A DNA stretch of 33,418 nucleotides from Bacteroidaceae bacterium (lineage in GTDB: Bacteria; Bacteroidota; Bacteroidia; Bacteroidales; Bacteroidaceae): positions 1-33,418 of the forward strand of contig JAFUYM010000026.1 of assembly GCA_017470525.1 (NCBI GenBank), read 5' to 3'. The notes beneath the pieces are model-generated. The model was given only the letters and a program-made list of their open reading frames with translations. It was not told the origin of the DNA and did no database searches. Shown here in pieces: positions 1 through 31,844 of this stretch (position 1 is the first letter of the stretch; each line of letters begins with the position of its first letter). The position numbers and the translations under genes are program-made.

Positions 1-118
1 GAAAAGTGAAAAGTGAAAAGTGAAAAATTTGCTACCATACTGATAGGGGGATGCATTTCATTCCTTTTAAGTGGAATGCGGCAGCAAATTTTTCACTTTT
101 CACTTTTCACTTTTCATT
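1..118. repeat. Inverted repeat made of GAAAAGT units, 32-bp perfect arms
   Basis: The left arm (2-33) and right arm (83-114) are perfect reverse complements. Each arm has three tandem 7-nt GAAAAGT units followed by GAAAAATTTGCT. A smaller hairpin, CATTCC/GGAATG (59-64 with 73-78), lies in the loop. A 29-nt stretch (8-36) recurs exactly at 19592-19620. The right arm ends 12 bp before the polA -7 box, so it covers the polA -33 position. The element may extend left of the window. It looks like an interspersed palindromic element; no coding is apparent. Confidence 0.85.
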
Positions 119-18451: not shown

Positions 18452-19600
18452 ATGGTTACAATCAAGAAAGTAGAGACAAAAAAGGAACTGAAGCAGTTCA
18501 TCCGTTTCAATTACGAACTATACAAAGATAATGCCTATTCGGTGCCAGACTTGTATGAGGATATGCTGAACACTTTCTCGGACAAGAATGCCGCGATGGA
18601 GTTTTGTGAGGCTGCCTATTTTCTGGCATACAAGGAAGGAAAACTGGTGGGAAGAGTGGCTGCCATCATCAACAAGAAGGCAAACAAGACATGGGGACTG
18701 AAAAACGTGAGGTTCGGATGGATTGACTTTATAGATGATGAGGAAGTGAGCGAGGCTCTGCTGAAGGCGGTGGAAGAGTGGGGCAAGGAGAGGGGCATGG
18801 ACACGATTCAGGGTCCATTAGGCTTCACAGACATGGATGCAGAGGGCATGCTGATTGAGGGGTTTGAGGAACTCTCCACCATGGCAACCATCTACAACTA
18901 CCCCTACTACCAGCATCACATTGAGCGGCTGGGCTTTGAGAAGGATGCCGACTGGATTGAGATGCTGATGACGGTGCCGAAGGAGACGGGCATCCCTGAA
19001 CGGTTGAGCCGCATTGCGGAGATTGTGATGAAGAAGTATGACCTGCGCATCAAGAAATACACGTCGGCAAAGAAGATTGCCAAGGAGTATGGTCAGGAGA
19101 TTTTCAGTGTCATCAACGAGGCGTTCAAACCGCTGTTTGGATATAGCGAATTGAGCCAAAAGCAGATAGACCAATATGTGAGGATGTATCTGCCTGTGCT
19201 CGACCTGAAGTTGGTGAGCCTCATCACGGAGGCAAACGGGCGACTGGTGGCTGTGGGCATTTCGATGCCGTCGATGTCGAAAGCCCTCCAAAAGGCGAAG
19301 GGAAAGTTGACTCCTTTCGGTTGGTGGCATCTGCTGAAGGCACTCAAAATCAAGAAGCCGAAGACCCTTGACTTGATGTTGGTGGGTGTGTTGCCCGAAT
19401 ACCAAAGCAAGGGTGTCAATTCCATCCTTTTCTACGACCTCCTGCCTATCTATATTTCGGAGGGGTACGACTATGTGGAAACCAATCCTGAACTGGAATC
19501 GAACGACAAGGTGCAACAGCAATGGATTTACTTTGAGAGAAGACAGCACAAACGCCGCCGTTGCTACAAGAAGGAAATAGAAGTGAAGAATGAAAAGTGA
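18452..19600 (+). CDS. GNAT-fold N-acetyltransferase-like protein
   Basis: This 382-aa protein is predicted to be soluble. The N-terminal half (about 1-190) has GNAT-like sequence (KEGKLVGRVAAIINKKAN). The C-terminal half holds the better acetyl-CoA-binding-like motif, LMLVGVLPEYQSKGVNSILF (about 310-330), followed by a Y-x-x-V-E-T-N stretch. It resembles a family of large GNAT proteins common in Bacteroidota; the acceptor substrate is unknown. The ATG at 18452 is chosen because the promoter -7 box sits at 18423-18430. The last codons and the TGA stop lie within or next to a GAAAAGT repeat, so the final residues (NEK) are repeat-encoded. parE begins 31 bp downstream, probably on the same transcript. 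Confidence 0.85.
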   Translation: MVTIKKVETKKELKQFIRFNYELYKDNAYSVPDLYEDMLNTFSDKNAAMEFCEAAYFLAYKEGKLVGRVAAIINKKANKTWGLKNVRFGWIDFIDDEEVSEALLKAVEEWGKERGMDTIQGPLGFTDMDAEGMLIEGFEELSTMATIYNYPYYQHHIERLGFEKDADWIEMLMTVPKETGIPERLSRIAEIVMKKYDLRIKKYTSAKKIAKEYGQEIFSVINEAFKPLFGYSELSQKQIDQYVRMYLPVLDLKLVSLITEANGRLVAVGISMPSMSKALQKAKGKLTPFGWWHLLKALKIKKPKTLDLMLVGVLPEYQSKGVNSILFYDLLPIYISEGYDYVETNPELESNDKVQQQWIYFERRQHKRRRCYKKEIEVKNEK

Positions 19601-19620
19601 AAAGTGAAAAATTTGCTACC
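19592..19620 (+). repeat. Single-arm copy of the GAAAAGT repeat
   Basis: This 29-nt sequence is identical to 8-36. Unlike the copy at the start of the window it has no inverted partner. It supplies the TGA stop of the GNAT gene and ends 11 bp before the parE start, so it may have inserted or expanded between two co-transcribed genes. Confidence 0.85.
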
Positions 19621-23712: not shown

Positions 23713-24147
23713 ATGATAAGTTACAATGTTGACGGTGTGAAAATGCCTGCCATCCGTCGCCGCGACACCAGCGCATGGATAAAGGCTGTTGCTGCCACAT
23801 ACGGCAAAAGGGTGGGGGACATCGCCTACATCTTCTGCGACGACGAGAAGATTCTGGAGGTCAATCGACAGTATCTCCAGCATGACTACTACACCGACAT
23901 CATCACTTTCGACTACTGCGACGATGCCCTCCTCACAGGCAAGAAAGACACCATCGCGGGCGACCTCTTCATCAGCCTCGACACCGTGCGTTCCAATGCT
24001 GAGCAACAAGGCACCACTTATGAAGAAGAACTGCACCGCGTCATCATCCACGGAGTGCTCCACCTCTGCGGCATCAACGACAAAGGTCCTGGCGAACGGG
24101 AAATTATGGAAGCAGCAGAGAACAAGGCACTCGCCATGCTCTCATAG
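23713..24147 (+). CDS. ybeY: Endoribonuclease YbeY (rRNA maturation factor)
   Basis: This 144-aa metal-dependent RNase acts in 16S rRNA 3'-end processing and ribosome quality control. Signature regions are LEVNRQYLQHDYYTDIITFDY and HGVLHLCGINDKGPGERE near the C-terminus. Two zinc-ligand histidines (HxxxH) are present. The third, His in E. coli HGMLHLLGYDH, aligns with Asp here; I recall similar sequences in other Bacteroidota YbeY, so this is probably a lineage trait rather than damage. The ATG lies 1 bp after the S41 protease stop. The gene ends the operon that starts near 18423 and is followed by a CTAG array. Confidence 0.93.
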   Translation: MISYNVDGVKMPAIRRRDTSAWIKAVAATYGKRVGDIAYIFCDDEKILEVNRQYLQHDYYTDIITFDYCDDALLTGKKDTIAGDLFISLDTVRSNAEQQGTTYEEELHRVIIHGVLHLCGINDKGPGEREIMEAAENKALAMLS

Positions 24148-24154
24148 AGAAATT

Positions 24155-24244
24155 CTAACTTTTCTAGCCTATCTAGAATAACTAGAATGACTAGTAGGGC
24201 TAGAAAGGCTAGAAAGGCTAAAAAGGCTAAAAGGATTAGACAAA
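24155..24244. repeat. CTAG array A, 10 units of exactly 9 nt
   Basis: CTAG or a one-base variant (CTAA, TTAG) starts at 24155, 24164, 24173, 24182, 24191, 24200, 24209, 24218, 24227 and 24236, without slippage. The 5-nt spacers are mixed at the left end (for example CCTAT) and mostly AAAGG at the right. The array fills most of the 127-bp gap between ybeY and argF', starting 8 bp after the ybeY stop. It ends in ACAAACAAC, nearly the same as the end of array B. Confidence 0.9.
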
Positions 24245-24274: not shown

Positions 24275-25303
24275 ATGAAAATCTTTCAACACGTTTCCGA
24301 TATCGGCGACCTCCGCAAAGCCCTCGACGAGGCTTTTGAAATCAAGGCTGACCGTTACAAGTATCAGCAGTTGGGTAAGAACAAAACTGCGATGCTCATT
24401 TTCTTCAATAACTCTCTCCGCACTCGCCTCTCCACCCAAAAGGCAGCCCTCAACCTCGGCATGAACGTCATCGTGCTCGATGTAAATCAAGGTGCTTGGA
24501 AATTGGAGACAGAGCGCGGTGTCATCATGGAAAGCGACAAGAGCGAACATCTCTTGGAAGCCATTCCTGTGATGGGGTGCTATTGCGACATCATCGGTGT
24601 GCGTTCCTTTGCCCGGTTTGAATCTCGCAAGGATGATTACGAAGAGAAGATTCTCAATCAGTTCATCCAGTACAGCGGTCGCCCCGTCTTCTTCATGGAG
24701 AGTGCCACCGTGCATCCTTTGCAGGCATTTGCCGACCTCATCACCATTGAGGAGTACAAGAACAAGACGCTGATTGAGCCAAATCCGTTGTTTGGTGGCA
24801 ATGCCATCCAACGCACTCCCAACCAGCGTCCGAAGGTGGTGCTCTCATGGGCACCGCATCCCAAGGCACTTCCACAGGCTGTGCCCAATTCCTTTGCAGA
24901 ATGGATGAATGCTGCCGACGTGGATTTCGTGGTCACACATCCTGAAGGCTACGAACTCGACCCGCAATTTGTGGGCGATGCCAAGGTGGAATACGACCAG
25001 ATGAAAGCATTCGAGGGAGCGGATTTCATCTATGCCAAGAACTGGAGTTGCCCGGGTGTGACCCGTCCTGAAGAGTATGGCAAGGTGTTGGGTGATTATC
25101 ATGATTACGCTGCATGGACCGTATCTGACCGCCAGATGGCAGTGACCAACAACGCTTTCTTCATGCATTGTCTGCCCGTACGCCGCAACATGATTGTGAC
25201 GGACGATGTGATTGAGGCACCCACCTCCATTGTGATTCCAGAGGCAGCCAACCGCGAGATTTCTGCAACGGTGGTGCTGAAACGGATGCTGGAAACGCTA
25301 TAA
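24275..25303 (+). CDS. argF': N-succinyl-L-ornithine carbamoyltransferase
   Basis: This 342-aa transcarbamylase forms N-succinyl-L-citrulline from carbamoyl phosphate and N-succinylornithine in the Bacteroides-type arginine pathway. The carbamoyl-phosphate motif is NNSLRTRLSTQKAA (SxRTR type). MHCLPVRRNMIVTDDVIE gives the HCLP motif. The sequence follows B. fragilis ArgF' closely where I recall it, but residue 90 is Ser (ESDKSEHLLEA) where B. fragilis has Pro90, the residue reported to set succinyl versus acetyl specificity. There are two extra loops, near 183-200 (after EEYKN) and after NWS near 255, so it is longer than the usual about 318 aa. It lies between CTAG arrays A and B; no TAnnTTTG promoter was seen upstream. 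Confidence 0.93.
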   Translation: MKIFQHVSDIGDLRKALDEAFEIKADRYKYQQLGKNKTAMLIFFNNSLRTRLSTQKAALNLGMNVIVLDVNQGAWKLETERGVIMESDKSEHLLEAIPVMGCYCDIIGVRSFARFESRKDDYEEKILNQFIQYSGRPVFFMESATVHPLQAFADLITIEEYKNKTLIEPNPLFGGNAIQRTPNQRPKVVLSWAPHPKALPQAVPNSFAEWMNAADVDFVVTHPEGYELDPQFVGDAKVEYDQMKAFEGADFIYAKNWSCPGVTRPEEYGKVLGDYHDYAAWTVSDRQMAVTNNAFFMHCLPVRRNMIVTDDVIEAPTSIVIPEAANREISATVVLKRMLETL

Positions 25304-25313
25304 GAGGTATTTT

Positions 25314-25385
25314 CTAGCCAAACTAGCCCTTCTAGCCCTACTAGAAATACTAGAAGGGCTAGATAAACTGGAAAGGCTAAACAAA
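25314..25385. repeat. CTAG array B, 8 units of 9 nt with a central hairpin
   Basis: CTAG starts at 25314, 25323, 25332, 25341, 25350 and 25359, then CTGG at 25368 and CTAA at 25377, all in 9-nt phase. Left units read CTAGCCNNN and right units mostly CTAGAANNN, so the halves are complementary: CTAGCCCTTCTAG (25323-25335) pairs perfectly with CTAGAAGGGCTAG (25350-25362). It begins 10 bp after the argF' stop and runs into the terminator at 25390. Confidence 0.9.
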
Positions 25386-25389
25386 CAAC

Positions 25390-25422
25390 AAAAAAGGCTG
25401 CAATCAACTTGCAGCCTTTTTT
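25390..25422. terminator. Bidirectional intrinsic terminator between argF' and lgt
   Basis: A 14-bp perfect stem, AAAAAAGGCTGCAA with TTGCAGCCTTTTTT, encloses a 5-nt loop TCAAC. It has a T run on both strands. The lgt stop codon (25404-25406) lies in the loop, so the hairpin overlaps the end of lgt. Confidence 0.93.
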
Positions 25423-27485: not shown

Positions 27486-27595
27486 CGGAATATTTTGGAA
27501 AGAAAGGGAAAACACCTGCACAAAATCTTTTCTTCGTGGGAGAAAAAGAGCCTACACGCTCCACCTCCGCGCCCCTGCTTCCACAACCTCTAAAG

Positions 27596-27825
27596 GGGAG
27601 AGAGTCTTACCCTTCCAAGGGAGAGAGTCTTACCCTTTAAGGGGTGAGAGTCACTCCCCTTTAGGGGTGCTGAAACAGCCCTGAAAAGGGTGATGGCAGA
27701 AACGGGAAAGTGGAGCACCCAGAAGCATTTGGGCGAGGAATGCAAAAGCAGGGCAATGGAGAACTTTGGGATAGGGTGGTGGAGAACTTTAGGGTAGGGT
27801 GGTGGAGAAGCCACCACGAATTGAA
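27596..27825. repeat. Degenerate tandem array of ten 23-nt units
   Basis: Units start at 27596, 27619, 27642, 27665, 27688, 27711, 27734, 27757, 27780 and 27803. Nine of the ten begin with a form of (G/T)GG(A/T)G; unit 7 (CGAGGA) diverges. Units 1 and 2 share the exact 19-mer GGGAGAGAGTCTTACCCTT; units 8 and 9 differ at two positions. The first three units are bounded by CCTCTAAAGGGG (27587) and CCCCTTTAGGGG (27656), a near-perfect inverted pair. It occupies half of the 503-bp space between ychF and purL. No convincing gene was seen there. Confidence 0.75.
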
Positions 27826-27884: not shown

Positions 27885-27915
27885 TTGGGGTTTCGGGGAA
27901 AATGTCGTACCTTTG
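27885..27915 (+). promoter_or_regulatory. purL promoter
   Basis: A TTG -33 element (27885-27887) and TACCTTTG -7 element (27908-27915) are separated by 20 bp. The -7 box overlaps an upstream in-frame ATG (27902), so translation must begin at the ATG at 27941. Confidence 0.75.
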
Positions 27916-27940
27916 CAGGAAAATTCACATCTGTTATTTT

Positions 27941-30900
27941 ATGATTTACTTTTTCAGAACACCAGCACAGAGCGTGATAGCCACTCAAGTGAACCATGAA
28001 CTCTCTGCTGATGAAACCCGTGAACTTTGCTGGCTGTATGGCGAGGCTCAACCCGAAAGTGAGAACAATTTGCAGGGATTCTTCGTAGGTCCTCGCCGTG
28101 AAATGATTACTCCTTGGAGCACCAATGCTGTGGAAATCACACAGAACATGGCGATTCAGGGTGTGCAGCGCATTGAGGAGTATTTCCCTGTGGAGAGTGA
28201 GGACGCAGAACATGACCCCATGCTGCAACGCATGTACAAGGGCTTGAATCAGGACATCTTTACGGTGAACATCGAACCTGCACCGATTCTGCATATTGAG
28301 AATCTCGAAGAATATAATGAGCAGGAGGGACTTGCTCTCTCGCCCGAGGAGATAGAATACCTGCACAAGGTGGAGGGTCAGTTGGGCAGAAAGTTGACCG
28401 ACTCCGAGGTGTTTGGTTTTGCGCAGATTAACTCCGAACATTGCCGCCACAAGATTTTCGGCGGCACGTTCATCATCGACGGCAAGGAGAAGGAGAGTTC
28501 ACTCTTCCAGATGATTAAGAAGACAACCCAAGAGAACCCCAACAAGATTCTCTCAGCATATAAAGACAACGTGGCGTTCAGTCAAGGTCCTGTGGTGGAG
28601 CAGTTTGCTCCTGCCGACCACTCGACGAGCGACTATTTTGAAGTGAAGGACATCGAGTCGGTGATTTCGCTGAAGGCTGAAACGCACAACTTCCCCACGA
28701 CGGTGGAGCCGTTCAACGGTGCTGCTACGGGTACGGGCGGTGAAATCCGTGACCGTATGGGTGGCGGTGTCGGCTCCTGGCCAATTGCTGGTACGGCGGT
28801 GTATATGACCAGTTACCCACGCAATGGGGTGGCTCCGAGTCAGCCACATAGTTATCCGAAGTGGACAAAGTCAGATAAGGAGGGCGACATCCGTCCTTGG
28901 GAAGAGATTCTGCCTATCAGAAAGTGGCTGTATCAGACTCCTGAGCAGATTCTGATTAAGGCATCGAACGGTGCCAGTGACTTTGGCAATAAGTTTGGTC
29001 AGCCGCTGATTTGTGGTTCTGTGCTCACGTTCGAGCATGCCGAACAGCAGGGCGACACGACAGAAGAATACGGCTACGACAAGGTGATTATGCTGGCTGG
29101 TGGTGTGGGTTACGGCACCAAGCGCGACTGCCTGAAGGGTACGCCTGAAAAGGGCAACAAGATTGTGGTGGTCGGTGGCGACAACTACCGCATCGGTCTC
29201 GGTGGCGGGTCTGTGTCTTCTGTAGATACGGGTCGCTATTCGTCGGGCATCGAGTTGAACGCTGTGCAACGTGCCAACCCCGAGATGCAGAAACGCGCCA
29301 ACAACCTCGTTCGCGCGCTGTGTGAGGAGGAGGTGAATCCTGTGGTGAGCATTCACGACCACGGCTCCGCAGGACACGTCAATTGCCTGTCTGAATTGGT
29401 GGAAGAATGTGGTGGTCTCATCGACATGACCAAGTTGCCAATTGGCGACCAAACACTCTCTTCGAAGGAGATTATTGCCAACGAGAGTCAGGAGCGCATG
29501 GGTCTTCTCATCGACGAAAAGCATATTGAGCACGTGCGTCAGATTGCAGAGCGTGAACGCGCACCGCTGTATGTGGTGGGTGAAACGACGGGCGATGCAC
29601 ACTTCGCCTTCCAACAGGGAGACGGTGTACGTCCGTTTGACTTGGATGTGGCACAGATGTTCGGTCATTCGCCCAAGACCTACATGAGGGATGAAACGGT
29701 GGAGAGGAAGTATGAGGATGTGGGTTATTCCTACAAGGAAATCGAGGCATATCTGGAGAACGTGCTGCAACTGGAGGCTGTGGCTTGTAAGGACTGGTTG
29801 ACCAACAAGGTGGACCGTTCGGTGACGGGTAAGATTGCCCGTCAGCAGTGCCAAGGCGAGATTCAGTTGCCACTCAGCGACTGCGGTGTGGTGGCATTGG
29901 ATTATCGGGGCGAGAAGGGTATCGCCACTGCCATCGGTCATGCACCACAGGCAGGTTTGGCAGACCCAGCAGCGGGCAGTGTGCTCTCTGTGGCTGAATC
30001 GCTCACGAATCTCGTGTGGGCACCCATGGCTGAAGGTCTTGACTCAGTGAGCCTGTCGGCAAACTGGATGTGGCCCTGCCGTTCGCAGAAGGGTGAGGAT
30101 GCACGTCTGTATCAGGGTGTGCAGGCATTGAGCGACTTCTGCTGTGCTTTGCAAGTGAATGTGCCGACAGGTAAGGATTCACTCTCCATGACACAGAAGT
30201 ATCCTGACGGCAGCAAGATTATCTCGCCGGGAACGGTGATTGTATCGTCAGGCGGTGAGGTGAGCGACGTGAAGAAAGTGGTTAGCCCTGTGTTGGTGAA
30301 CGATGCGAACACAACGCTTTATCATATCGACTTCTCGTTCGACAAACTGAGATTGGGCGGTTCTGCCTTTGCTCAGAGCCTTGGCAAAGTGGGTAGCGAT
30401 GTGCCGACGGTGAAGAACCCTGAGTATTTCAGAGATGCGTTCTTGGCTGTGCAGGAATTGGTGAAGGAGGAACTCCTTTTGGCGGGTCACGACATTAGTG
30501 CAGGTGGTTTGATTACGACGCTGCTGGAGATGACGTTTGCCAATCAGAAAGGCGGTATCAAGGCAGACTTGAACGGCATTGCAGAGAAAGACCCTGTGAA
30601 GTTGCTCTTTGCTGAGAACCCCGGGGTGGTGATTCAGGTGAAGAATGCAGACAAGCGAGATGTGGAGACGATTCTGAACAAGGCAGGTGTTGGTTTCGTG
30701 GAAATCGGACATCCTATTGAGGAACGCCAGATTGTGGTGAAGAAGGGTGGTCGCAACCGCTATTTCGACATCGACAAACTGCGCGATATTTGGTACAGCA
30801 CTTCTTACCGCCTCGACACAAAGCAGTCGTTCAACGGCATGGCAAAGGAGCGTTTTGAGAACTATAAAAAGCAACCGATTGAGCACAAGTTCCCTGCTTC

Positions 30901-31729
30901 CTTCACGGGCCAGTTGGCACAGTATGGCATCAGCGCTGACCGCCGCGAACGTACTGGCGTGAAGGCAGCCATCATCCGCGAGAAGGGTACGAACGGTGAG
31001 CGCGAAATGGCTTACTCGTTGTATCTGGCGGGCTTCGACGTGAAGGATGTGATGATGACCGACCTTGTGAGTGGTCGTGAGACCTTGGAGGACATCAACA
31101 TGATTGTATTCTGTGGTGGTTTCTCCAACTCCGACGTGCTGGGCAGTGCGAAGGGATGGGCAGGTGCCTTCCTGTTCAATCCGAAGGCAAAGGCAGCACT
31201 CGATGCGTTCTATGCCCGTGAGGACACGCTGTCATTAGGTATCTGCAACGGATGCCAGTTGATGGTGGAACTCGGTTTGATTAACAACAACCATGCGGTG
31301 ACGGACGCGAAGGATTATGCGCAGATGTTGCACAATGTGAGCCACAAGTTTGAGAGTGAGTTTGTGACCCTCCAGATTCCAGAGAACAAGTCTGTCATGT
31401 TCGGTTCGCTGAGTGGTAGCAAGTTAGGCTTGTGGGTGGCTCATGGTGAGGGCAACTTCCGTCTGCCAAAGGCTGAAAGCGACTACCATATCGTAGCCAA
31501 ATACAACTATTCTGGCTATCCAGCCAATCCTAACGGTTCTACCTATGATGTGGCTGGTATCGCATCGGCTGATGGTCGCCACTTGGCAATGATGCCGCAC
31601 CTCGAACGTGCTATCTTCCCATGGCAACAGGCAAACTACCCTGCTGACAGGAAGGGCGATGAGGTGACTCCTTGGATTGAAGCATTTGTGAACGCACGAA
31701 AGTGGGTGGAAAAAAAGAAGGGGCAATAG
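27941..31729 (+). CDS. purL: Phosphoribosylformylglycinamidine synthase, single-chain
   Basis: This 1262-aa cytoplasmic enzyme converts FGAR, glutamine and ATP to FGAM in purine synthesis. It is the large form, with all domains in one chain. An N-terminal PurS-like region is followed by a linker with FGFAQINSEHCRHKIFGGTF, ATP-grasp-like AIRS domains (SLKAETHNFPTTVEPFNGAA, GGEIRDRMGGG, NVPTGKDSLSM) and a class I glutamine amidotransferase domain from about residue 1004. The nucleophile is Cys1102 in LGICNGCQLM, and PHLERAIFPW is near the C-terminus. The ATG at 27941 (MIYFFRTPAQSV) is chosen because the promoter overlaps the earlier ATG. CTAG array C begins 6 bp after the stop. Confidence 0.97.
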   Translation: MIYFFRTPAQSVIATQVNHELSADETRELCWLYGEAQPESENNLQGFFVGPRREMITPWSTNAVEITQNMAIQGVQRIEEYFPVESEDAEHDPMLQRMYKGLNQDIFTVNIEPAPILHIENLEEYNEQEGLALSPEEIEYLHKVEGQLGRKLTDSEVFGFAQINSEHCRHKIFGGTFIIDGKEKESSLFQMIKKTTQENPNKILSAYKDNVAFSQGPVVEQFAPADHSTSDYFEVKDIESVISLKAETHNFPTTVEPFNGAATGTGGEIRDRMGGGVGSWPIAGTAVYMTSYPRNGVAPSQPHSYPKWTKSDKEGDIRPWEEILPIRKWLYQTPEQILIKASNGASDFGNKFGQPLICGSVLTFEHAEQQGDTTEEYGYDKVIMLAGGVGYGTKRDCLKGTPEKGNKIVVVGGDNYRIGLGGGSVSSVDTGRYSSGIELNAVQRANPEMQKRANNLVRALCEEEVNPVVSIHDHGSAGHVNCLSELVEECGGLIDMTKLPIGDQTLSSKEIIANESQERMGLLIDEKHIEHVRQIAERERAPLYVVGETTGDAHFAFQQGDGVRPFDLDVAQMFGHSPKTYMRDETVERKYEDVGYSYKEIEAYLENVLQLEAVACKDWLTNKVDRSVTGKIARQQCQGEIQLPLSDCGVVALDYRGEKGIATAIGHAPQAGLADPAAGSVLSVAESLTNLVWAPMAEGLDSVSLSANWMWPCRSQKGEDARLYQGVQALSDFCCALQVNVPTGKDSLSMTQKYPDGSKIISPGTVIVSSGGEVSDVKKVVSPVLVNDANTTLYHIDFSFDKLRLGGSAFAQSLGKVGSDVPTVKNPEYFRDAFLAVQELVKEELLLAGHDISAGGLITTLLEMTFANQKGGIKADLNGIAEKDPVKLLFAENPGVVIQVKNADKRDVETILNKAGVGFVEIGHPIEERQIVVKKGGRNRYFDIDKLRDIWYSTSYRLDTKQSFNGMAKERFENYKKQPIEHKFPASFTGQLAQYGISADRRERTGVKAAIIREKGTNGEREMAYSLYLAGFDVKDVMMTDLVSGRETLEDINMIVFCGGFSNSDVLGSAKGWAGAFLFNPKAKAALDAFYAREDTLSLGICNGCQLMVELGLINNNHAVTDAKDYAQMLHNVSHKFESEFVTLQIPENKSVMFGSLSGSKLGLWVAHGEGNFRLPKAESDYHIVAKYNYSGYPANPNGSTYDVAGIASADGRHLAMMPHLERAIFPWQQANYPADRKGDEVTPWIEAFVNARKWVEKKKGQ

Positions 31730-31735
31730 GATTTT

Positions 31736-31844
31736 CTAGCCCTTCTAGCCTCTCTAGCCCGACTAGAAAGACTAGAAAGACTAGATGTTACTAGAAAGGC
31801 TAGATATACTAGAAGGGCTAGAATGACTAGATAAACTAGAAAAA
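31736..31844. repeat. CTAG array C, 12 units of 9 nt with one 10-nt step
   Basis: Perfect CTAG starts at 31736, 31745, 31754, 31763, 31772, 31781, 31791, 31800, 31809, 31818, 31827 and 31836. All steps are 9 nt except 31781 to 31791. The first three units are CTAGCC(C/T) type, and the rest are CTAGA type. CTAGCCCTTCTAG (31736-31748) is the reverse complement of CTAGAAGGGCTAG (31809-31821), the same pair as in array B. It fills the gap between purL and the chrA pair. Confidence 0.92.

What the first reader, a model, noticed from the sequence alone, without database searches (positions are those of the whole stretch)
24155..24244. CTAG-every-9-nt arrays: an unrecognised intergenic repeat family (array A)
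Ten consecutive CTAG or one-base-variant tetramers fall on an exact 9-nt grid directly after the ybeY stop. Two more such arrays occur after argF' and purL. CTAG is usually among the rarest tetranucleotides in bacterial genomes and looks scarce elsewhere in this window, so some 25 perfect copies in three short spacers is striking. Spacers vary while phase is kept, which suggests selection on the CTAG grid. Possible roles are a protein-binding ladder, mRNA 3'-end structure, or a repeat-spreading element.
Basis: partly seen in the sequence, partly recalled or inferred. Interest (0 to 1): 0.78.

Follow-up and report, generated by a model that had tools for sequence, protein, structure and literature searches.

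The report
CTAG-every-nine-bases arrays in gut bacteria
Short DNA arrays with the rare word CTAG every nine bases, separated by ever-changing five-base spacers, turn up between genes and, in frame, inside some essential enzymes of rumen and gut Bacteroidales; they are real, differ quickly between related species, and what makes them is not known.

Summary
In detail: 24 of the window's 25 CTAGs lie in three arrays on a 9-nt grid (one 10-nt step in array C). They are not purely intergenic gene-end signals. They are much denser between genes, but at least 14 lie in frame within Pfam-supported proteins such as IleS, AlaS, ValS and CarA, and some supply the preceding gene's stop codon. Spacer order hardly affects folding (145 arrays, mean z -0.06), so selection for an RNA hairpin is not supported. 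Close-species arrays gain or lose whole units and change less in CTAG than in spacers (8 of 196 versus 36 of 214 nt). Best reading: DNA-level arrays born locally by unit-wise duplication, tolerated where sequence is free, with CTAG kept by an unidentified genome-wide factor. Sister families exist (CCTAGG every 10; 7-nt arrays). Not seen in print in the searches named. Closest known: heptamer direct repeats and Rickettsia palindromic elements.

The parts
24155..24239 (.). Array A: ten 9-nt grid positions, six exact CTAG (24164-24212) flanked by CTAA before and CTAA, CTAA, TTAG after; between ybeY stop (24145-24147) and argF' start (24275)
25314..25380 (.). Array B: six exact CTAG (25314-25362), then CTGG and CTAA; between argF' stop and the convergent lgt gene
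25396..25422 (+). Separate intrinsic-terminator-like hairpin GGCTGCAATCAACTTGCAGCC plus T run just after array B; similar sequence seen after argF' in several relatives with and without an array
   Evidence: read by eye; relatives
31736..31839 (.). Array C: twelve exact CTAG, one 10-nt step (31781 to 31791), otherwise 9 nt; between purL stop (31727-31729) and a chromate-transporter gene (31860)
23713..24147 (+). ybeY (PF02130), upstream gene of array A
24275..25303 (+). argF'-like carbamoyltransferase (PF02729, PF00185), upstream gene of array B
27902..31729 (+). purL (FGAR-AT domains, GATase_5), upstream gene of array C

Best explanation
The arrays are short-period, CTAG-cored DNA arrays born in place by unit-wise tandem duplication (replication or repair slippage that re-anneals on the CTAG word), settling wherever 9-nt growth is tolerated: gene-to-gene spacers first, and protein loops when no TAG falls in frame (9 nt = 3 codons). 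CTAG stays uniform because something at the DNA level needs it: either a unit must carry CTAG to be copied, or a trans-acting CTAG-recognising factor present in some species selects for it. Spacers are free. Shown: resemblance of units within an array, whole-unit gains and losses, in-frame tolerance, decayed words at array edges, slower change of CTAG than spacer, presence and absence between related species. Inferred: slippage as the copying step, and a genome-wide CTAG-dependent factor (slippage alone does not explain why unrelated arrays in one genome share one core).
For: Units within an array resemble each other more than units of different arrays of the same genome or locus in 9 of 11 sets, e.g. 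0.424 vs 0.314 in the window's genome and 0.538 vs 0.333 in G014; lag-2 similarity (0.604) exceeds lag-1 (0.540). Three length differences inside aligned close-species arrays are whole units: 27 nt = 3x9 (L295/L296), 10 nt (L299/L300), 12 nt (L297/L298). The next grid word outside an array is often one base off CTAG (CTGG 18, ATAG 14, CTAT 13, CTAA 12, CCAG 12, TTAG 11 of 394 edges), while 1305 of 1343 internal words are CTAG in arrays chosen for at least four CTAG. In-frame cases: the window genome's own glycosyltransferase carries a four-CTAG array in a loop that is 21 aa longer than in 82%-identical relatives and 20 aa longer than in many at 75-76%; 14 Pfam-supported proteins. At one ValS spot G281 has a CTAG-9 array and its genus-mate G357 a 7-nt array (read by eye). 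Nine of 76 co-directional arrays begin with the upstream gene's stop codon as their own TAG. In the genus period 8 is absent (0 of 45) and period 10 occurs in 10 of 45, mostly as CCTAGG-N4.
Against: No enzyme or binding protein is identified. Slippage usually gives identical copies, but lag-1 spacer identity is close to binomial (7% of 731 pairs identical), so most spacer differences are present early or arise fast. Core constraint is only about two- to fourfold and rests on 11 hand-aligned segments; in L291/L292 core and spacer changed equally. Arrays of G013 and G333 after argF' aligned badly, with gaps that are not whole units, and were left out of the count. Array positions recur across species (purL 3' end in 8 of 30 genomes), which could also mean site-specific function. 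In 2 of 11 sets (L041, L123) units are no more alike within arrays than between.
Confidence: 0.42

Rival explanations
1. Protein-binding ladder: a dimeric DNA-binding protein binds the palindromic CTAG every 9 bp and the arrays have been selected as platforms (nucleoid anchoring, local silencing or regulation), so each CTAG is under purifying selection.
For: Palindromic core, fixed spacing, free spacers, CTAG changing less than spacer between close species, recurrence at the same gene ends in several species, and a sister family with a longer palindrome, CCTAGG every 10.
Against: 18 of 37 genomes of the genus have no four-unit array; some arrays sit inside essential genes. The Trp repressor family, a CTAG binder I recalled, is absent (0 of 45). 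Nine bp is not the helical pitch (recalled), so sites would rotate around the helix.
Confidence: 0.27
2. RNA device: the arrays form 3'-UTR hairpins acting as terminators, stabilisers or insulators between co-directional genes.
For: All three window arrays fold better than dinucleotide shuffles (z -5.2, -4.0, -5.4). Among 55 arrays of seven or more units the native spacer order folds slightly better than permuted order (mean z -0.28, sem 0.13). Arrays are few in divergent gaps (9 of 109 intergenic arrays; divergent gaps are 59 of 295 gaps of 60 nt or more's loci) and between co-directional genes start a median 13 nt after a stop.
Against: Over all 145 arrays permuting spacer order leaves the energy unchanged (mean z -0.06, sem 0.09; 100 intergenic -0.16, sem 0.11), and the window's runs score -1.4, 0.1, -1.8 and -0.4 (array C as two runs), so the low energies come mostly from the CTAG lattice. 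Arrays occur in coding regions. Array B has its own terminator-like hairpin.
Confidence: 0.1
3. Transposase footprints: an element with a 9-bp target duplication and a CTAG-centred target inserts and excises, each time leaving an extra 9-bp unit.
For: Unit length equals a common target-duplication length (recalled); palindromic centre; in-frame tolerance.
Against: Neighbouring spacers are rarely identical (7%); the same genus also has 7-, 8-, 10- and 11-nt arrays with other cores, which one transposase cannot explain. I did not search for transposases at arrays.
Confidence: 0.08
4. Ordinary old simple-sequence repeats that happen to contain CTAG, with no role for CTAG.
For: Tandem repeats of 5-11 nt are known in bacteria (PMC4679880, passages). 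In viral contigs CTAG-9 arrays are mostly uniform and in ORFs (98 of 135 uniform, 118 of 135 in ORFs), as ordinary coding repeats would be.
Against: Bacteroidales-type arrays are the opposite: 101 of 112 variable, 70 of 112 intergenic. CTAG is otherwise strongly avoided, the reversed word gives 0 matches in 61 genomes (though 7 of 295), and middle-unit integrity is 39 of 40.
Confidence: 0.1

Closest known systems
Heptamer direct repeats (TAACTGA arrays of Beggiatoaceae, cyanobacteria and five Bacteroidetes; MacGregor 2015, PMC4679880, passages read) and the STRR heptamers of cyanobacteria (recalled)
   Same: Short-unit direct repeats, mostly intergenic, patchy across phyla, function unknown; the window's relatives also carry 7-nt arrays
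   Different: One fixed heptamer repeated exactly; [quoted passage not shown] Here a 4-nt palindrome is fixed, five bases per unit vary, and the unit is 9 nt
Rickettsia palindromic elements (review PMC10969869, passage read)
   Same: Repetitive elements accepted in frame inside unrelated genes
   Different: RPEs are families of about 150 bp with a conserved peptide; CTAG arrays share no sequence beyond the grid and look locally made
REP/BIME and other interspersed palindromes (recalled)
   Same: Intergenic, palindromic, near gene ends, fold as hairpins
   Different: No family consensus outside CTAG; spacer order nearly irrelevant for folding
Conserved intergenic CTAG words of Salmonella and E. 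coli (PMC5337935, passages read)
   Same: Rare CTAG retained between genes despite very short patch repair
   Different: Concerns CTAG words in intergenic sequences; 'tandem' and 'array' do not occur in that text

Membership tests
Heptamer direct repeats (TAACTGA / STRR type) | Unit of 7 nt with one exact sequence | tested here: not met
   Unit 9 nt; adjacent spacers identical in 7% of 731 pairs
Heptamer direct repeats (TAACTGA / STRR type) | Mostly intergenic, patchy across taxa | tested here: met
   70 of 112 intergenic in 91%-ORF DNA; 19 of 37 genus genomes; 11 of 295 in the order, seven of them with counts no higher than the control reaches
Rickettsia palindromic elements | In-frame presence inside unrelated genes | tested here: met
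   14 of 19 ORFs scanned have Pfam matches across or on both sides of the array; loop 20-21 aa longer in the window genome's glycosyltransferase
Rickettsia palindromic elements | Element families sharing a sequence of about 150 bp and a conserved peptide | tested here: not met
   Spacer identity between arrays of one genome 0.31-0.34 in G000 and G014
Intrinsic terminators / 3'-UTR hairpins | Sequence arranged to favour a hairpin, followed by a T run | tested here: not met
   Spacer-permutation mean z -0.06 over 145 arrays, -0.28 for 55 longer ones; no T run after A or C (by eye)
REP/BIME elements | Shared palindromic consensus of tens of bases, dispersed copies | tested here: not met
Simple sequence repeats / microsatellites | Near-identical tandem units; length changes by whole units | tested here: inconclusive
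   Whole-unit indels seen, but units are not near-identical
Rfam RNA families | Match above a gathering score | tested here: not met
   No match in the window
Trp-repressor tandem operator | Trp repressor family protein in the genome | tested here: not met
   PF01371 in 0 of 45 genus genomes; found in 2 of 14 control genomes

The most novel reading that the evidence does not exclude
Some Bacteroidales carry a CTAG-specific activity (a polymerase-, nuclease- or repair-linked factor, possibly gained and lost between related species) that writes and re-writes arrays of CTAG plus five free bases into tolerant DNA, including protein loops: an endogenous array generator that diversifies spacers and adds in-frame peptide segments. 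Lineages differ in the core and period used (CTAG-9, CCTAGG-10, CCGG-9, 7-nt cores).
Probability: 0.22. Interest if true: 0.88.

Novelty: new variant of a known kind. Interest (0 to 1): 0.66.

Why it matters
If the reading is right, a common group of rumen and gut bacteria has a fast, word-specific way of making new intergenic DNA and new in-frame protein segments in essential enzymes, in genomes that otherwise purge the same word. That would give a natural system for studying how short arrays are born, how a sequence word is kept while its surroundings change, and which factor reads CTAG. Practically, such arrays can join reading frames or shift stop codons and so mislead gene calling, and they might serve as fast strain markers.

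Tried and rejected
RNA-hairpin selection: tested by permuting spacer order in 145 arrays and not supported as the general cause; a slight tendency remains in longer arrays (55, mean z -0.28, sem 0.13). The first impression from dinucleotide shuffles came mostly from the CTAG lattice.

Strong purifying selection on CTAG: I first inferred a more than fiftyfold constraint from within-array uniformity; close-species alignments gave about two- to fourfold, so I dropped it. I also first read the purL array of G333 as having spacers unrelated to G013; G336 shares spacers with G333, so that reading was dropped too.

Dropped from the count: the argF' and purL arrays of G013 versus G333 (badly alignable), units where neither species has CTAG, units lost in one species, and array ends beyond the aligned part.

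Ghost arrays in array-negative genomes (a genome-wide switch): near-CTAG runs of five or more were 2 in 157 kb of array-negative loci against 1.5 for the mean of four control palindromes, and 12 in 158 kb of array-positive loci against 1.5. Not supported, apart from single cases in G007 and G333 read by eye.

Trp repressor as reader: absent. Vsr as cause: in 39 of 45 genomes, with and without arrays; it may explain CTAG scarcity but not arrays. CTAG depletion does not track arrays: in called ORFs of the compared loci o/e is 0.06 in array-negative and 0.26 in array-positive genomes, the latter including CTAGs of arrays that overlap called ORFs.

Low counts in the order-wide scan (1-4 matches in seven genomes) are at the level of the reversed-word control (1-5 in 7 of 295); only 18, 35, 68 and 83 stand out.

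One protein search (GcvP region) returned nothing at the E-value limit I set, probably too strict for the region.

Full report
Observation. The window has 25 CTAGs, 24 of them in three arrays on a 9-nt grid after ybeY, an argF'-like gene and purL. Dinucleotide shuffles give 56 CTAGs on average, so the word is scarce outside the arrays. Array A is ten grid positions with six exact CTAGs; B has six exact, then CTGG and CTAA; C has twelve exact with one 10-nt step. Among all tetramers and periods 4-30 only CTAG and the overlapping TAGA at period 9 reach runs of six.

Spread. The window's genome (3.24 Mb in 83 contigs) has 50 exact three-unit matches and none to the reversed word; contig C55 repeats part of the window's contig C23 almost exactly, leaving ten distinct arrays. 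In the first relatives set 19 of 37 genomes of the genus (the window's own included) have four-unit matches, 1 to 117 each, and 0 of 24 from other families; the control is 0 of 61. In an even draw of the order 11 of 295 match; three besides the window's genome have high counts (18, 68, 83); the other seven have 1-4, no higher than the control, which hits 7 of 295 with 1-5. A few titles are isolates rather than metagenome bins, so assembly of metagenomes is not the cause.

Period and core. In the genus, four CTAGs at 8-nt spacing occur in 0 of 45 genomes and at 10-nt in 10 of 45, there mostly as the longer palindrome CCTAGG plus 4 nt. A search for any core-plus-spacer array in the genus loci finds, between called genes, 37 hits of period 9 (28 with CTAG), 45 of period 7 (28 without a palindromic core), 16 of period 10 (11 with CTAG), 11 of period 8 and 10 of period 11. 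Many of these loci were fetched because they hold CTAG arrays, and a long array can count twice. With a stricter rule in the sampled stretches, the window's genome gives five intergenic period-9 hits, all CTAG (four in the window, array C twice; one in L223), and G014 gives four, of which two are CTAG; three and nine further hits fall in called ORFs.

Where they sit. With a simple ORF caller of my own, 167 arrays in Bacteroidales-type loci fall between co-directional genes (76), at convergent ends (24), at divergent starts (9) or in ORFs (58); between co-directional genes they start a median 13 nt after the stop, and in nine of 76 the upstream stop codon is the array's own TAG. The caller is crude, so some in-ORF calls are false. 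I scanned 19 of them with Pfam (17 of the 59 in-ORF calls and two), picked because the translation looked like a known protein; 14 have Pfam matches across or on both sides of the array, among them IleS, AlaS, ValS, CarA, TruB, an ABC-F protein and a Mur ligase. PcrB and a deaminase domain are joined into one reading frame through an array (L079). GcvP2-type proteins of two Prevotellaceae genomes carry arrays at the same residues (L029, L127).

Empty and alternative sites. The window genome's glycosyltransferase (contig C77) has a four-CTAG array in a loop; relatives at 81-82% identity (P0003-P0005) have a loop 21 aa shorter, many at 75-76% one 20 aa shorter, and the closest (83%) has a degenerate grid there. 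At one ValS spot G281 has a CTAG-9 array and its genus-mate G357 a 7-nt array, both near the length of the other relatives, so there the array mostly replaced sequence rather than adding it (by eye). A CCTAGG array in G013 is absent from the matching place in the close relative G333.

Same places, new sequence. Downstream of purL, 8 of 30 genomes have an array with at least three CTAGs on a 9/10-nt grid (G000, G338, G336, G035, G016, G013, G033, G014), three more look degenerate (G003, G333, G006) and 19 have none (counted by eye; 30 of the 41 genomes with a match were fetched). Downstream of argF' there are four clear cases (G000, G003, G013, G014) plus a broken one (G333) of 30, and downstream of ybeY three of 30 (G000, G014, G016) (by eye). 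Spacers are mostly unrelated between these species; G338/G035 and G013/G336 at purL can be aligned. In three purL cases (G338, G035, G006) the gene's stop is the array's TAG; in two (G013, G336) the stop lies inside the array.

Rates. In 11 hand-aligned segments of orthologous arrays from close species, 8 of 196 core nucleotides and 36 of 214 spacer nucleotides differ (Fisher 2e-5; 0.011 if core changes are doubled because arrays were found by exact CTAG). Badly alignable arrays (G013/G333 after argF' and purL) were left out. Three length differences inside aligned arrays are whole units: 27, 10 and 12 nt. Within arrays, spacer identity is 0.54 at lag 1 and 0.60 at lag 2; in the window's genome it is 0.42 within arrays against 0.31 between arrays, and within exceeds between in 9 of 11 sets. 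So neighbours look related by duplication, yet they differ far more than alignable close-species orthologues do, which suggests that spacer variety arises early or by a process faster than background substitution. That is the oddest fact here and my explanation covers it only partly.

Structure. Each window array folds better than dinucleotide shuffles, but shuffling the order of spacers while keeping CTAG does not change the energy over 145 arrays (mean z -0.06); in the 55 longer ones there is a slight tendency (-0.28, sem 0.13).

Avoidance. CTAG is at 0.17 of expectation in 410 kb of the window's genome, and AGCT (0.04), GATC (0.09) and GGCC (0.09) are lower still. In called ORFs of the compared loci it is 0.26 in array-positive and 0.06 in array-negative members of the genus. 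Vsr, the enzyme of very short patch repair, a process said to eliminate CTAG (PMC5337935, passages), is in 39 of 45 genomes. So avoidance is general and does not track arrays.

Control. In the Bacteroidales-type loci 101 of 112 are variable and 70 of 112 intergenic.

Literature. Searches of the open-licence library listed no paper that I recognised as describing CTAG arrays in Bacteroidales; I saw listings, and passages of four papers only. Subscription papers and preprints are not in it. MacGregor 2015 (PMC4679880) describes exact TAACTGA heptamer repeats, and a MITE review (PMC10969869) describes in-frame Rickettsia palindromic elements.

Conclusion. Real, widespread, fast-changing, DNA-level arrays with a fixed palindromic word. 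Most likely locally duplicated and limited by tolerance, with CTAG kept by an unidentified factor. A binding ladder remains a serious rival.

Noticed in passing
L178 442-500, L287 2635-2710, L299 1998-2103, L302 2774-2847: Sister family: CCTAGG plus four free bases every 10 nt, in 10 of 45 genomes of the genus.
   Followed up: partly
window 1-26, 90-116, 19581-19610; L182, L269-L288: 7-nt arrays (GAAAAGT, TTTTCAC, AAGTGAA in the window; AATT-, TTAA- and other cores in relatives), mostly between genes.
   Followed up: partly
L301 about 2210-2290; L154 5953: Period-9 arrays with CCGG instead of CTAG in G333 (by eye) and G031.
   Followed up: no
L190 2548; L154 1013: Period-9 arrays with core ATAGGAC/ATAAGAC in G025 and G031; G025 has them at the places where the window has arrays A and B.
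   Followed up: no
window genome, 410 kb sample: Strong avoidance of AGCT (0.04), GATC (0.09), GGCC (0.09) and CCGG (0.27), as if several restriction systems act or acted.
   Followed up: no
L231, L232, L233, L236 (glycosyltransferase loop): A different, C/G-rich palindrome-like insert lies in frame in the same loop in G005, G333, G003 and G013, so that loop is a general landing place.
   Followed up: no
window 27593-27667 and 27757-27809: Two 23-nt tandem repeats upstream of purL.
   Followed up: no
L042 3972-4411; L055 5493-5916: Very long CTAG arrays: about 54 units of period 8 in an unnamed bacterium (RUG12186), and about 45 units, mainly of period 9, in a Verrucomicrobia MAG.
   Followed up: no
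G000 contig C55: C55 (10,166 nt) is a near-exact copy of part of contig C23, 1 mismatch in 9,680; probably an assembly duplicate.
   Followed up: no
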